A stretch of DNA of 34,374 bases from an uncultured Schlesneria sp. (GTDB lineage: Bacteria; Planctomycetota; Planctomycetia; Planctomycetales; Planctomycetaceae): the NCBI GenBank assembly GCA_903911795.1, contig CAIWEX010000717.1:1-34374 (forward strand). Direction: 5' to 3'. Position 1 is the first letter of the stretch. Each line of letters begins with the position of its first letter. The notes below the pieces were generated by a model, which was not told the DNA's origin, did not search any database, and saw only the letters and a list, made by a program, of their open reading frames with translations. Shown one piece after another: positions 19,268 through 25,752 of the stretch. The position numbers and the translations under genes are program-made.

Positions 19268-19424
19268 GCCTGAGCGTTGACAGGCTCCAGGGATGGCACC
19301 CAGGCAATAACTTTGAGGTTTTCAAGGGGCAACCGCTGGGGAGTGAACAACGTCCGATCAGTGTTCACCAGCGGTTCAATTGTTACGATATGCGGCAAAT
19401 CTCCGCTCGCTCAGGAAGCACCTC

Positions 19425-22400
19425 ATGAAGTTCACCCTGCGTTCCAGTTGGTTTGTCGTTCTGATCCTCGCGATAACATCATTTGCTGCCGCCCAGGAGC
19501 AAAAGACAGCCATTCCACACGCACAGGACAAGCCGCCGAATGATCCGCGTGATCCGGTGACTGCTGCCAAAATGATGACCGTTCCTGAAGGATTTTCGGT
19601 CGAAGTCGTCGCGGCCGAACCGGATATCGTCAACCCGGTCGCCATGGCAATCGACGAACGTGGCCGTTTCTGGATTACCGAGTCATTCGAATATCCTCGC
19701 CGTGCCCCTGGGCCGGGAAAAGACGTCGTCAAAGTCCTGGAAGACACCGACGGCGACGGCAAGTGCGATAAGTTCACGGTGTTCATGGACGGACTGAATA
19801 TTCCCAGTGGAATCGCCGTCGGACATGGGGGGGTGTGGATCGCGAATTCACCCGATATCCTGTTTGTGCAGGATACGGACGGCGACGGAAAGGCCGACAA
19901 GCAGGAGGTGGTCGTCACCGGTTTCGGACGCACGGATACTCACGAGTTGCCAAATTCGCTCACATGGGGCCCCGATGGATGGCTGTACGGCCTGAATGGT
20001 GTGTTCAACTTCTCGCATGTGAAATATTCAGAAACGAACCCCAACTACAAGAAAGATCACCCCGGCTGGCCATTGACCTGCGCCCTGTTCCGCATTCATC
20101 CACGGACTCGGGAATTCCAGGTCTTTTGCGAAGGGACCAGTAACCCTTGGGGGGTTGCTTTTGATAATGACGGGGAAGCCTTCATCAGTGCCTGCGTCAT
20201 TGATCACCTGTGGCACCTGACCGAAACCGGCTACTACCATCGACAGGGTGGACCCTATCCTCCTTTCACCTGGAAGATCGAAAGTATCGTCAAGCACAAG
20301 CACCAGAAAGCGGCTTATTGCGGGATCCATTATTTCGACAGCGACGCGTATCCCGAGAAATACCGCGGCAAGCTCTACATGGGAAATATCCACGGAGGAT
20401 GCATCAACGTCGACAGGATTGAGCGGGACGGTGCGACCTACAAGGGGTTCGGCGAAGACGATTTCCTGACCGCAAACGATGCTTGGTTCATGCCAGTTGT
20501 TCAGAAGACCGGTCCTGATGGGTCCCTATATATCCTGGATTGGTACGACCGGTACCACTGCTATCAGGATGCGAACAGAGACCCTGCCGGCATTGACCGG
20601 TTGAAAGGCCGCCTTTACCGCGTCCGCTACAAGGAGACTCCCCGCACTCCTAAGGGATTTGACCTCTCCAAGGAGACTGACGAAAAGCTGATCGACCGGC
20701 TGGGAGCGAAAAATGACTATCTCCGATGGACTGCCATGCGGCTGTTACAAGAACGAGGCACAGACGCGACACGCGACTCTCTGCTGGCAGTGATCTCTGA
20801 TCAGAACAACGATCGAACATATCGACTGCAGGCCGCGTTCGCCGCTGCTGGAATAAATGACCCAACCCCGAATCGAGTTCACATCGAGAAGCTAGGCGGC
20901 GCACTGCGACAATCGAGCGACGTCGTGTTGCGAGCCTGGGCACTTCGCCTGGCTTTCAACGATTCCGTAATCCAGAAGCTCGGCGCGACGAAAATGGACC
21001 AAATTACGAGCTGGAACGACCTGCCACCTGATATTCCAGAGCCACAAAAACTGCAGGCCGTGATCGCGCTCTCGAAACTCCCTTCAAAATCGCCGAAGAT
21101 TCTCGAGGGAATGCTCTGGTACCTGTCCAATTCCGGTCAGGACGTCTTGATCCCACGCATTGTCTGGCAAAACCTGCACCCCCGATTGGAAGATCAGACC
21201 GACGATTTCTTAATCGCCCTGCAAAAGAGCAATGCTCTCAAATCCAAACCGGTCGTCGATCTGATGCCTCGGATCGTCGAACGCATTCTCGGTCGTCAAA
21301 AGTTCGACGCACAACCGATTGCGACGTTGTTCGGAATGCTTTTGAACGGCCATGACAATGTCGGTCGGCAGGTCCTGGAAGTCATCTCGACCAAGGTCCA
21401 GACGGGTGAATTGAAAGGCGAAAAGCTTAATCAGCTCAAAGTCGCGATGTCGCCTCATTTGACGAAGATCTTCGAGGGTTCAGCCGACTCGGTTCTCTAT
21501 CTGAATGCCGCGTTTTTGGCGACCGCTTTCGGAGACAAAGCAGGTTTCGCAGCCGCCCGCAAAGCGATCGAAACCCCTTCCGTCGGAGAAGATCAGCGAC
21601 TGGCGGCTTTGGGTGCTCTGGTTTCCGCCGGACAGAATGACGTCGTGGCGAGTGTTACGAAAATCTTCGAACAGACTCCGGCAGCTTCCGTCGATTTTCG
21701 AGGCAAACTGCTGACGGCACTGGCCCGACTCGATCACCCCGATGTCGCCACGCTGGCCCTGACGTTCTATCCGAAGATGGAACCTGACCTGCAACCCCGT
21801 GCGATTGAGCTGTTGACGCAGCGAGCCATTTGGGCAAAGTCGCTGCTGCAGGCCGTCGCCGACAAGAAGATTCCCGCCACTGCCATCAATCTCAATCAAG
21901 CCCGTCGCTTGAAGGAACTGAAGGACGACGCACTATCCAAGCTGCTGACAACACATTGGGGTCAGGTCCGCGAAGGCCGCGACCCGAATCGTGAACAGTA
22001 CATCGCCAACATGAAAACTCTGCTCCGTAAGACGCCCGGCAACGAAGCCGCTGGCGAAAAAGCATTCAAAAAGGTCTGTGCTCAATGTCACAAACTGTAT
22101 GGTGAAGGAGCCGAAGTCGGTCCCGACATCACTCGCAACGGCCGCAACGACTTCACGCAGCTACTGTCCAATGTCTTCGATCCCAGCCTGGTGATTGGTG
22201 CAGGTTATCGCTCGTACACCCTCGTAACCACGGGGGGGCGAGTCCTGAATGGCCTGCTGGTTGAAGAGAGTCCGCAGCGAGTCGTCTTGAAGGTTCAGGG
22301 TGGAAAACAGGAAGTGATTGCGAGAAGCGACATCGAAGAGTTCGTCGTCAGCGAAATTTCGCTGATGCCGGAGCAGTTGGAAAAGCAGTTGAGTCAGCAG

Positions 22401-22940
22401 GAAATCATTGATCTGTTCGCATTCATCACGCTCGACAAACATCCGAGTGATCCGACAGCAAAAAGACTGCCAGGCGTCTCACAAGTCGCCCCGCGCGAAT
22501 CTGTGAATCCCGCGGAATTTCCGTCACTCGTCGCCGAGATCCTGCCGGGTTTCTCAACGAGCGAATCAGGTGAACTGGGCGTCGGACTGCTGTCTGAACA
22601 TCGCGGCCGGGACAACGTCTTGAGAACGCATCCCGTTTCAAAAGACAAACCCTGTGTTCTCGCCACGAAGCTGACACCTCCTGCGGACAAGAAAACCAGG
22701 TTGATTCTCGACCTGTCGCACGACCCTCGTGGAGACTGGCGTCTGGTTGTCCGAGGAAACGGCCAGCGCATGGCGGATGAAATGATCTCGAAAGAGACGT
22801 GTACAAATGGCTGGCGAACGATCACCGTCGACCTGTCCAAGTTCGCAGGCCAGGAACTGAAACTCGACCTCGTCAACCAGGCCAACGACTGGTCATGGGA
22901 GTTCGGCTACTGGGGAGGGGCGAGAATCGTCAGTGAGTAA
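19425..22940 (+). CDS. PVC-type haem-binding dehydrogenase: N-terminal propeller, HEAT-like middle, cytochrome-c CxxCH domain, C-terminal beta domain
   Basis: Signal peptide MKFTLRSSWFVVLILAITSFAAAQ; PEGFSVEVVAAEPDIVNPVAMAIDERGRFWITE opening; haem motif CAQCH; GPDITRNGRNDFTQLLSNVFDPSLVI and SLMPEQLEKQLSQQEIIDLFAFI typical of the family. Confidence 0.93.
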   Translation: MKFTLRSSWFVVLILAITSFAAAQEQKTAIPHAQDKPPNDPRDPVTAAKMMTVPEGFSVEVVAAEPDIVNPVAMAIDERGRFWITESFEYPRRAPGPGKDVVKVLEDTDGDGKCDKFTVFMDGLNIPSGIAVGHGGVWIANSPDILFVQDTDGDGKADKQEVVVTGFGRTDTHELPNSLTWGPDGWLYGLNGVFNFSHVKYSETNPNYKKDHPGWPLTCALFRIHPRTREFQVFCEGTSNPWGVAFDNDGEAFISACVIDHLWHLTETGYYHRQGGPYPPFTWKIESIVKHKHQKAAYCGIHYFDSDAYPEKYRGKLYMGNIHGGCINVDRIERDGATYKGFGEDDFLTANDAWFMPVVQKTGPDGSLYILDWYDRYHCYQDANRDPAGIDRLKGRLYRVRYKETPRTPKGFDLSKETDEKLIDRLGAKNDYLRWTAMRLLQERGTDATRDSLLAVISDQNNDRTYRLQAAFAAAGINDPTPNRVHIEKLGGALRQSSDVVLRAWALRLAFNDSVIQKLGATKMDQITSWNDLPPDIPEPQKLQAVIALSKLPSKSPKILEGMLWYLSNSGQDVLIPRIVWQNLHPRLEDQTDDFLIALQKSNALKSKPVVDLMPRIVERILGRQKFDAQPIATLFGMLLNGHDNVGRQVLEVISTKVQTGELKGEKLNQLKVAMSPHLTKIFEGSADSVLYLNAAFLATAFGDKAGFAAARKAIETPSVGEDQRLAALGALVSAGQNDVVASVTKIFEQTPAASVDFRGKLLTALARLDHPDVATLALTFYPKMEPDLQPRAIELLTQRAIWAKSLLQAVADKKIPATAINLNQARRLKELKDDALSKLLTTHWGQVREGRDPNREQYIANMKTLLRKTPGNEAAGEKAFKKVCAQCHKLYGEGAEVGPDITRNGRNDFTQLLSNVFDPSLVIGAGYRSYTLVTTGGRVLNGLLVEESPQRVVLKVQGGKQEVIARSDIEEFVVSEISLMPEQLEKQLSQQEIIDLFAFITLDKHPSDPTAKRLPGVSQVAPRESVNPAEFPSLVAEILPGFSTSESGELGVGLLSEHRGRDNVLRTHPVSKDKPCVLATKLTPPADKKTRLILDLSHDPRGDWRLVVRGNGQRMADEMISKETCTNGWRTITVDLSKFAGQELKLDLVNQANDWSWEFGYWGGARIVSE

Positions 22941-22963: not shown

Positions 22964-23053
22964 GTTCTTGGTTCTTGGTGCTTCGTTCTTCGTTACATGC
23001 TCAGAGTAAGATGACAACCATGAACCAAGCACGAAGAACCCAGAACCCAGAAC
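22964..23053. repeat. GTTCTTG-family heptamer micro-repeat inverted repeat
   Basis: GTTCTTG GTTCTTG GTGCTTC GTTCTTC GTTACAT (22964-22998) facing CATGAAC CAAGCAC GAAGAAC CCAGAAC CCAGAAC (23019-23053); five exact-length heptamers per arm. Confidence 0.9.
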
Positions 23054-23067
23054 TGATAAATTTTCGC

Positions 23068-25752
23068 CTACGACCTTCTGCCTGGTTCGTTCGTAGCAGC
23101 TTTCAGGCTTTCTTTTGTCGCCTGTGCGGCTGCCATTTGCAGGCCCTCGTCGTCGGGGCGGCGTGAGGCACACCACTTCAGGTGTTCTGCTGCTTCACGG
23201 TATCGCTTGGCACTATACAGTTCCCATGCCAGGCGATTGCGGATCAGATAGCTCTGTGGAACCCGCTTCAAACCGCGATTCAGGATGCGAATTGCGAGGT
23301 CTGTATCTTCCAATGCCTGGCATGCGTCGTGCATCGACAGAATCGCGTACTCGAGCCGCTGTTCCGGCAGAGGGGACTTCAGCCGCTGCATCCCTTCGTT
23401 GATGTGCCTGATCCAGATGGGTCGGGCCGCATCGACTCGATCGAGTTCCGTATAGGCTCGAGCAACCATCCCCTGTGCTTCCCAATCGGGTTTCAGGTTA
23501 TCCAGAAAAAACTCTGGTTCGACCTGCGGGGCGAGTTGCGTCACAATGATGCTTTGAATCCGACGGCTGCGTGAAAAGGCTTCTCGCCAGTATTCCATGG
23601 CTCCTTCAACGTCGCCCGACAGCATCACGTTGCGACCGACCTGGAACAAGACTTGAGGGTCATGCGGTCGCAGTCGCAAGGCCTGCTTCAGCACTTTCAT
23701 TTCATCGTCGTCCGAGGAAAGTTCCAGGAATCCAAGTTCGGCGAGTTTCACATACGAGTACGCTCGCAGTGGAGATGCGTGGACGGCGCGGCGATAGGAC
23801 TTCACCGCCAATTGCAGCATCTTCACATTTTTGCCGACCGCCAGTTGCATCCAGGCCTTCATCTTGGCGAGTGACTCGAATTCAGAGCCCTTCACGACAT
23901 CGCGGATCTGGCCGAATGACAGCGGATTCTCACTGGTTTCCTGCAAGGCATCGAACCGCCGCAGGTATTCCATTCCGGCAGACTCCTGCAGCTTGGAATC
24001 TGAAGGATCAAGCTTCGCGGCTCGAATCAGATAGTCTCCGCGCTCTTCCACAGTATCGGGATCTTCTTCGTCTTGAGCAGAATTCTGATAGGCCAGAGTC
24101 AAGTAACGCATCCGATCGGGTTCGGCCTGTGCTGCGGGAATCTTGTGGCCAAGCATCCAGACACCCGATGCCGCCAGACCGCAACCCGATACCAGCGTAA
24201 TTAAACGCGGAAGTCGAAATCCAGGGGCAACCAGTTCATCAGATTCGTTCGCGGTGACCATCGATCGGCTGACACGTATCACGGCTGCCAATTGGGCTGC
24301 CAGCAGGAACATGCATGACGGGGTGTACCAGAAGAAATCAAAGGCCGCGTGACCGATGTTCGCCAGCAGGCTCGCCAGGACCGCAGCCGCAACCGACTGA
24401 TATTTCAGATCGTGATGCCATAATGCTCGGAGACAATGTCGCAGGCTGAATGCGATGAAGGCAAAGGCGACGACCAGCCCACACATCCCCGATTCCGAGG
24501 CAACCTGCAAGTACCCACACTCGGCATGGGTGTATTCCATGCTGTCTTCGTTCGCCTGATCGAAATGCAGATGGTAAGCGTCGGCGTGAGTTCCAATGCC
24601 GGTTCCCAGCCACGGGAAATCGCGAGCCACATCGATATTCGACTGCCAGATGACATAGCGGCCTTCGTTCGAATTGCTGTCGAGAGTTCCTTCCAGCCGT
24701 TTTTCCAAAGTCTCCATGCCAGTGACGAAAAAGATCACGCCGATGACCACTCCGGCGATACTGAGTCCCAAAACCAGCTTCGCGGATGCCAACCCCATGC
24801 GACAAAGGAGTCCCAGGCTGACAACTGTTGCGATCGTCAGTGACAGCAGGCCACCTCGCGAGTAGCACAACAGCGATGCCAGGGCTGCAGTTCCCAGTCC
24901 TGCCAACAGGAGCAGAACGGCAGCATTGTGAACAGGGGGTGCCAGACCATTATCGCCAGCCTGCTCCTGATCGTGAAACCGGCGCAGGATCCACCAGACC
25001 AGCGGGCCCACTCCCAGGGCCAGGAACTGTGAAAGGTGATTACGATTTGTGAAGCATCCCAGCGCGCAATGACTGGTGGTCATGAAGGGATGATCGACCA
25101 TCCAGAAAAACTTGTCGTTGCTGAACTTGTATTGCAGAAGTGCGAATGCCCCCATCGCGACACTCGCCAGGGCAGCACAACAGAGAATCCGTTCGGCATC
25201 GGCCAATGTTTGAATCCGCTGGACCATCACCAAGAACAGCAGGCCGTAGGCTGCGAACGTCGCCAGTCCAGAGGCCGTTTCTGCGGGGGCCAGTGAAAGC
25301 TGATTCCAACCGCCTGGCAGAATTCCTGAAGCGGTCGAACTGAGCATCAGGGGCAGGACATCATTCAATTGGGGGGAAAGCCACAACAGCCATGGTTGCG
25401 ACAGCGGAACAATCTGAATCGCCGCAACCGCGATTCCAAGACACCACAGCCACTCGCTGCCGCTCCAGACATACTTTCGTTCCGACGCAGTCAATTGATG
25501 CAGCAGCCAGCAGGTCGTCGTCGCCAGCGCGCCGACAACCAGAAACAATTGTCCAATCGCTGCGCGCCCACCAAACCCTAATGCGACCAGAATGAACGTC
25601 AGGCAGAGGCAAACATCGGTGGCAGTCACCAGCAGTGGCTGCGAGACACCATGCTTCGAACCCGGTTCCATAAATTGAACGGGCCCGGGTGATCGTCGTT
25701 TGTGTCGACGGCGACGATGACGATGTTCCTGAGACGGTTCTTCGTGGGACAT
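23068..25752 (-). CDS. O-antigen ligase-like (Wzy_C type) multi-TM protein with C-terminal TPR region
   Basis: Many hydrophobic segments; Wzy_C-like GRYVIWQSNIDVARDFPWLGTGIGTHADAY...YTHAECGYLQVASESG; C-terminal helical repeats (LRLRPHDPQVLFQVGRNVMLSGDVEGAMEYWREAF). Confidence 0.85.
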   Translation of the reverse strand: MSHEEPSQEHRHRRRRHKRRSPGPVQFMEPGSKHGVSQPLLVTATDVCLCLTFILVALGFGGRAAIGQLFLVVGALATTTCWLLHQLTASERKYVWSGSEWLWCLGIAVAAIQIVPLSQPWLLWLSPQLNDVLPLMLSSTASGILPGGWNQLSLAPAETASGLATFAAYGLLFLVMVQRIQTLADAERILCCAALASVAMGAFALLQYKFSNDKFFWMVDHPFMTTSHCALGCFTNRNHLSQFLALGVGPLVWWILRRFHDQEQAGDNGLAPPVHNAAVLLLLAGLGTAALASLLCYSRGGLLSLTIATVVSLGLLCRMGLASAKLVLGLSIAGVVIGVIFFVTGMETLEKRLEGTLDSNSNEGRYVIWQSNIDVARDFPWLGTGIGTHADAYHLHFDQANEDSMEYTHAECGYLQVASESGMCGLVVAFAFIAFSLRHCLRALWHHDLKYQSVAAAVLASLLANIGHAAFDFFWYTPSCMFLLAAQLAAVIRVSRSMVTANESDELVAPGFRLPRLITLVSGCGLAASGVWMLGHKIPAAQAEPDRMRYLTLAYQNSAQDEEDPDTVEERGDYLIRAAKLDPSDSKLQESAGMEYLRRFDALQETSENPLSFGQIRDVVKGSEFESLAKMKAWMQLAVGKNVKMLQLAVKSYRRAVHASPLRAYSYVKLAELGFLELSSDDDEMKVLKQALRLRPHDPQVLFQVGRNVMLSGDVEGAMEYWREAFSRSRRIQSIIVTQLAPQVEPEFFLDNLKPDWEAQGMVARAYTELDRVDAARPIWIRHINEGMQRLKSPLPEQRLEYAILSMHDACQALEDTDLAIRILNRGLKRVPQSYLIRNRLAWELYSAKRYREAAEHLKWCASRRPDDEGLQMAAAQATKESLKAATNEPGRRS

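What the first reader, a model, noticed from the sequence alone, without database searches (positions are those of the whole stretch)
22964..23053. Hairpin built from five heptamers per arm that fills a convergent gap
GTTCTTG-GTTCTTG-GTGCTTC-GTTCTTC-GTTACAT pairs imperfectly with CATGAAC-CAAGCAC-GAAGAAC-CCAGAAC-CCAGAAC. Both arms keep an exact 7-bp register and differ by transitions between arms, while the 127-bp gap between stops (22940 and 23068) is almost entirely this element. A 7-bp period cannot be coding-derived and suggests a periodic template process or selection on helix geometry.
Basis: partly seen in the sequence, partly recalled or inferred. Interest (0 to 1): 0.62.

Follow-up and report, generated by a model that had tools for sequence, protein, structure and literature searches.

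The report
Inverted seven-letter repeat arrays between genes
The hairpin is real, but it is one local copy of a seven-letter intergenic repeat that occurs at many places in this planctomycete genome, in many unrelated bacteria and in phages; it changes by gaining or losing whole seven-letter units, and its two arms match only because both are built from the same unit.

Summary
The 127-bp gap between two convergent genes (stops 22940 and 23068) holds two inverted heptamer arrays, 22964-22991(-22998) and 23019-23053. They are the most 7-periodic stretch of the window, and none of 5000 shuffles matches them. The arms do not pair in one fixed register: sliding by one heptamer pairs better (82% against 74%). 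All nine arm-to-arm differences are transversions, not transitions. In 33 inverted pairs from many taxa, unit order is not mirrored beyond shuffles, so nothing shows compensatory change. The unit is AAGNACN / GTTCTTN-like, variable at positions 4 and 7. Similar arrays lie at about 15 other places in this genome, in a same-genus genome (Schlesneria), in many phyla and in phage contigs. Two other loci in this genome share the element's core, and their arms differ by three indels of exactly 7 nt, as 7-nt slippage predicts. Orientation is strongly biased (38 rows GTT-loop-AAG against 1). Heptameric intergenic repeats, including convergent pairs close to stop codons, are published for Xanthomonas and cyanobacteria. 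This is a new motif and host for a known kind. Function is unproven; there is no U-tract terminator and no Rfam family.

The parts
22964..22991 (+). left heptamer array GTTCTTG GTTCTTG GTGCTTC GTTCTTC (a degenerate fifth unit GTTACAT to 22998); reads AAGNACN on the minus strand; starts 23 nt after the stop of the upstream gene
22992..23018 (.). loop/core between the arms (GTTACATGCTCAGAGTAAGATGACAAC); its reverse complement begins GTTGTCATC, as do the loops of two other loci (C407, C664) in the same genome
23019..23053 (+). right heptamer array CATGAAC CAAGCAC GAAGAAC CCAGAAC CCAGAAC (inverted; 14 nt from the stop of the minus-strand gene)
19380..22940 (+). upstream convergent gene: DUF7133 / HEAT / cytochrome-c type protein; start codon not checked
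23068..25752 (-). downstream convergent gene: O-antigen ligase (Wzy_C) with TPR repeats

Best explanation
The element is an inverted (convergent) pair of degenerate heptameric simple-sequence arrays, unit AAGNACN / NGTNCTT, in the spacer between two convergent genes. Shown: the unit recurs at many loci in this and other genomes, and two loci with a shared core differ by whole 7-nt units. Inferred: the arrays lengthen and shorten by 7-nt slipped-strand replication; they are tolerated next to gene ends because nothing there is coding; and this copy descends from a small dispersed repeat (core GTTGTCATC...) with two other recognisable copies in this genome. The hairpin follows from having the same unit in both orientations and can form in RNA from either strand in several heptamer-shifted registers. 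Its most likely effect, not shown, is modest: a structured 3' end or barrier between two converging transcripts, with no need for exact pairing and no evidence of a dedicated binding protein.
For: Eleven exact array hits in the own genome against 0 for the reversed control pattern; 39 against 7 in same-genus G006. The two variable positions (4 and 7) are the same in the own genome, G006 and other taxa. C407 and C664 share a 40-42 nt core and differ in the arms by three gaps of exactly 7 nt; the window copy shares GTTGTCATC and a near-identical arm. Arrays sit next to gene ends: GTT orientation within 40 nt after a stop, 35 of 188 against 5.5 expected; AAG orientation within 25 nt before a start, 19 of 188 against 5.5 (viral contigs 22 of 137 against 4.5). 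No mirrored unit order in 33 pairs. No terminator-like site at the element. The same kind is described in Xanthomonas: (GGGANTN)n, four units typical, mean 28 nt from the 5' neighbouring ORF, 70-75 convergent pairs per genome (PMC4692102).
Against: The strong orientation bias of inverted pairs (38 rows to 1) and of arrays relative to genes is more order than plain slippage predicts. Slippage has not been observed directly; no second strain of this species was available. Descent of the window copy from the C407/C664 repeat rests on 9 loop-junction bases plus heptamer sequence that could converge. Relatives do not share the gene order, so no empty site could be compared.
Confidence: 0.72

Rival explanations
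1. A bidirectional transcription terminator or RNA-stabilising hairpin selected for pairing: each convergent mRNA ends in the stem.
For: Position between two stops; stable folding on both strands (-35.7 and -40.2 kcal/mol; z -3.45 for the 141-nt plus strand). Similar hairpins fill gene-to-gene gaps in other taxa (L112, L113) and directly follow stop codons in phage contigs (L298, L326); L310 has AAAACC/GGTTTT around the stem. STRR hairpins in cyanobacteria have been suggested to terminate transcription (PMC2670836).
Against: No U-tract, and the terminator scan does not call it. Stem units are not mirrored. Many arrays elsewhere are single-armed.
Confidence: 0.3
2. A mobile MITE- or REP-like element, mobilised in trans (for example by a Y1/RAYT-type transposase), with heptamer arms as its termini.
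For: Two loci, probably three, share a core. Six Y1_Tnp matches exist in the genome.
Against: Only two or three copies; no target-site duplication seen by eye in the flanks; no match to the core with E <= 1e-3 in 39 other genomes; arms vary in unit number; single-armed arrays are common; no GTAG-type foot.
Confidence: 0.12
3. A 7-bp-phased recognition array for a DNA- or RNA-binding protein (AAGnAC sites repeated), the hairpin being incidental.
For: Positions 1, 3, 5 and 6 are 91-100% and position 2 84-96% conserved while 4 and 7 vary, in own, G006 and other taxa alike. AAG orientation lies before starts (22 against 3 for GTT in viral contigs).
Against: The sets were collected with a pattern that fixes those positions, so the conservation is partly built in. 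Host distribution is patchy: 6 of 59 relatives.
Confidence: 0.15

Closest known systems
Heterogeneous GGGAATC / (GGGANTN)n heptamer repeats of Xanthomonas (PMC4692102)
   Same: 7-nt unit with two free positions, mostly four units, intergenic, near the end of the upstream ORF, frequent convergent inverted pairs able to form stem-loops; preference for one strand after ORFs and the other before them.
   Different: Unit GTTCTTN/AAGNACN has no G-tracts, so no G-quadruplex; about 15-17 arrays seen here against 183-186 in Xanthomonas; different phylum.
Cyanobacterial short tandemly repeated repetitive (STRR) heptamers
   Same: 7-bp repeats between genes that can fold into hairpins (PMC2670836).
   Different: Different units; present here in a planctomycete.
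TAACTGA heptamer direct repeats of Beggiatoaceae, cyanobacteria and Bacteroidetes (PMC4679880)
   Same: Intergenic heptamers, patchy spread over distant phyla, 7-nt indels between related strains, many just upstream of start codons.
   Different: Different unit; almost always direct (one inverted case reported in BOGUAY).
Long simple sequence repeats, heptanucleotide class (Mrazek 2007, as cited in PMC4679880)
   Same: Heptamers are the commonest long-unit class in many bacteria; polymerase slippage proposed.
   Different: Those are mostly perfect tandem runs; these arrays are short and degenerate.

Membership tests
Heptameric intergenic simple-sequence repeats (LSSR/STRR/GGGANTN kind) | tandem unit of 7 nt | tested here: met
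Heptameric intergenic simple-sequence repeats (LSSR/STRR/GGGANTN kind) | many dispersed loci in the genome | tested here: met
   17 arrays of at least 3 units by one criterion
Heptameric intergenic simple-sequence repeats (LSSR/STRR/GGGANTN kind) | mostly outside genes, near gene ends | tested here: met
   mechanical ORFs only, and 7 of 17 own arrays fall inside a mechanical ORF, so the intergenic fraction is approximate
Heptameric intergenic simple-sequence repeats (LSSR/STRR/GGGANTN kind) | length variation in steps of 7 nt | tested here: met
   C407 against C664 (paralogous copies, not strains)
Heptameric intergenic simple-sequence repeats (LSSR/STRR/GGGANTN kind) | convergent inverted pairs (Xanthomonas class) | tested here: met
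Xanthomonas GGGANTN repeats | G-rich, G-quadruplex-forming unit | tested here: not met
   unit sequence
TAACTGA repeats | TAACTGA unit | tested here: not met
   unit sequence
Intrinsic (Rho-independent) terminator | GC-rich stem followed by a U-tract | tested here: not met
   no site at the element
Intrinsic (Rho-independent) terminator | terminates transcription in vivo | not testable with these tools
   needs RNA 3'-end mapping
REP/RAYT elements | 20-40 bp palindrome with a GTAG or CGTC tag at one end, in high copy | tested here: not met
   no such tag in the element; two or three copies
Rfam RNA families | score above a family's gathering threshold | tested here: not met
   best matches are eukaryotic miRNA models far below threshold

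The most novel reading that the evidence does not exclude
Convergent heptamer pairs follow one orientation rule (GTT arm after a stop, AAG arm before a start; GTT-loop-AAG 38 rows to 1) across phyla and phages, and the published Xanthomonas heptamer has a comparable rule with an unrelated unit. That could mean that a common, still unidentified process, for example repeat addition at 3' ends or transcription-coupled slippage, builds oriented 7-nt arrays at gene ends.
Probability: 0.12. Interest if true: 0.7.

Novelty: new member of a known kind. Interest (0 to 1): 0.33.

Why it matters
Heptamer repeats are the commonest long-unit tandem repeats in many bacteria and have no established origin or function. 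This case adds a unit (AAGNACN) shared by distant phyla and phages, a strong orientation rule for inverted pairs, and evidence that the arms change by whole units without compensatory pairing. It argues against reading such hairpins as structures selected base by base.

Tried and rejected
Orthologous gap in relatives: the O-antigen ligase gene is found in 12 of the 14 other same-genus genomes, but the neighbouring gene is not beside it and no hairpin of this kind follows the stop in the loci read. Phylum-wide search for the exact inverted pair with an 8-38 bp spacer: only the own genome of 392; opposite order 0 of 392. Conserved core in relatives: only weak 27-bp matches, E about 0.06. Rfam: nothing. 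Terminator scan: nothing at the element. A simple histogram of ATG positions after arrays showed no clear peak; a stricter test requiring a nearby upstream stop did. Loop homology of C982, C975 and C85 was weak and not used. A first mirror test using positions 4 and 7 only gave 0.57 observed against 0.59 shuffled, and was repeated with all positions.

Full report
WHAT IS THERE. The gap between the plus-strand gene ending at 22940 (DUF7133/HEAT/cytochrome-c type) and the minus-strand gene ending at 23068 (O-antigen ligase with TPRs) is 127 bp. It holds GTTCTTG GTTCTTG GTGCTTC GTTCTTC (GTTACAT) at 22964-22998, a 20-bp spacer, and CATGAAC CAAGCAC GAAGAAC CCAGAAC CCAGAAC at 23019-23053. Lag-7 identity is 0.75 and 0.79; none of 5000 dinucleotide shuffles of either arm reaches that at any lag from 3 to 14, and the top 7-periodic windows of the 34 kb all lie in these arms. 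TRF reports period 7 only here. The RNA folds at -40.9 kcal/mol over 141 nt, z -3.45; the bare gap gives -35.7 (plus strand) and -40.2 (minus strand).

The arm-to-arm differences in the stated register are nine transversions and no transitions (read from the arms printed). The register is not unique: inverted identity is 74% at the stated register, 82% when slid by one heptamer, 76% at +14 and 86% at +21 over 14 nt, and 6-47% at registers that are not multiples of 7. The arms therefore pair because both consist of the same unit.

COPIES IN THE GENOME. The window is contig C717 of an 8.39-Mb, 1338-contig planctomycete assembly. The same-genus genome G006 is 'uncultured Schlesneria sp. Umea3_bin-3867': its contig C145 has the same length (27,224 bp) and sequence as CAILLA010000145.1. 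AAGMACNAAGMACNAAGMAC matches 11 times exactly in the own genome against 0 for the reversed control, and 39 against 7 in G006; only 6 of the 59 genomes have any match. With up to 2 mismatches the own genome has 50 matches against 17 for the control. By a uniform criterion there are 17 arrays in the own-genome loci, ten of them with four units, and 15 in the G006 loci; positions 4 and 7 are the variable ones in both, as in other taxa. The pattern used for collection fixes the other positions, so their conservation is partly built in.

HOW COPIES DIFFER. C407 and C664 share the loop core (40 and 42 nt) and align with three gaps of exactly 7 nt in the arms and one of 2 nt in the loop. The window copy (reverse complement) has the same loop start GTTGTCATC and an arm that differs from that of C407 at one base over the last 33 nt. 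This is the most direct evidence that arms change by whole units. That the window copy descends from the same dispersed repeat is likely but inferred.

OTHER TAXA. Among 39 rows of inverted pairs with a spacer of at most 70 bp, 38 are GTT-loop-AAG and one is the reverse; counted once per locus this is 29 against 1, with some elements still seen from two contig ends. At least one reverse-order pair with a longer spacer (L123) falls outside that limit. In 33 pairs with at least three units per arm, the best arm-to-arm match is no better than after shuffling unit order: mean 20.4 against 19.8 in cellular loci and 18.8 against 18.7 in viral loci, one of 33 with p < 0.1. Power per pair is low; together they give no sign of compensatory evolution.

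POSITION RELATIVE TO GENES. With mechanical ORFs of at least 150 aa, arrays in GTT orientation lie within 40 nt after a stop 35 times of 188 (5.5 expected at random positions of the same loci; AAG orientation 19 of 180) and arrays in AAG orientation lie within 25 nt before a start 19 of 188 (5.5 expected; GTT 10 of 180). In viral contigs AAG before start is 22 of 137 (4.5 expected) against 3 of 126 for GTT, while after stops the two orientations are equal there (16 and 17). Random positions are mostly coding, so part of the excess merely says the arrays are intergenic; the orientation contrasts do not suffer from that. The window fits: each arm is in GTT orientation after its own gene's stop, 23 and 14 nt away. 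For two convergent genes that rule by itself produces an inverted pair.

WHAT IT IS NOT. No terminator-like site at the element; no Rfam family (only miRNA models far below threshold); no conserved core in relatives; no synteny that would allow an empty-site comparison.

KNOWN KIND. [quoted passage not shown] the authors cite the proposal that heptamers are favoured by polymerase slippage. PMC2670836 notes that cyanobacterial STRRs are usually 7-bp repeats and can form hairpins. PMC4679880 describes TAACTGA heptamers in distant phyla, with 7-nt indels between strains. The present element is this kind with another unit in another phylum.

VERDICT. A real, strongly non-random element of a known but unexplained kind. 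Slippage-built arrays tolerated at gene ends explain it best. The orientation rule is the part that deserves follow-up.

Noticed in passing
L298 7717-8829; L326 6281-6350; L332 1200-1262; L353 323-3350 (phage contigs): Several phage contigs carry two or three heptamer hairpins each in gene-to-gene gaps, many directly after stop codons; L310 8695-8764 is also flanked by AAAACC/GGTTTT like a bidirectional terminator.
   Followed up: partly
L120 and L138: In two Flavobacteriaceae genera (Leeuwenhoekiella, Aequorivita) an AAGAACN array lies immediately upstream of what looks like the same gene (murG-like N-terminus), so arrays may persist at orthologous places.
   Followed up: no
L112 1999-2093; L113 2877-2958: In a Pyrinomonadaceae and a Planctomycetaceae MAG the whole gap from stop codon to next start codon is a heptamer hairpin, GTT arm first and AAG arm last.
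   Followed up: partly
L206 771-1042 (G006:C44): A 19-bp tandem array (TTGAGCACCTTCGTGTTGA, 14 copies, 96% identity) lies next to a heptamer array in the same-genus genome.
   Followed up: no
L006 and L007 (G000 C85, C982): GGAGACCTTCGGTCG...GCGCCGAAC palindromic sequence occurs beside heptamer arrays at two loci of the own genome and looks like a separate dispersed repeat.
   Followed up: no
L136 and L144: One intergenic region can hold blocks of different heptamers in a row (e.g. GTGGAGG, AAGCACC, AGAAGTG; or GGGGCAT then AAGAACC then ACAACTG), as if the 7-nt period were kept while the unit changes.
   Followed up: no
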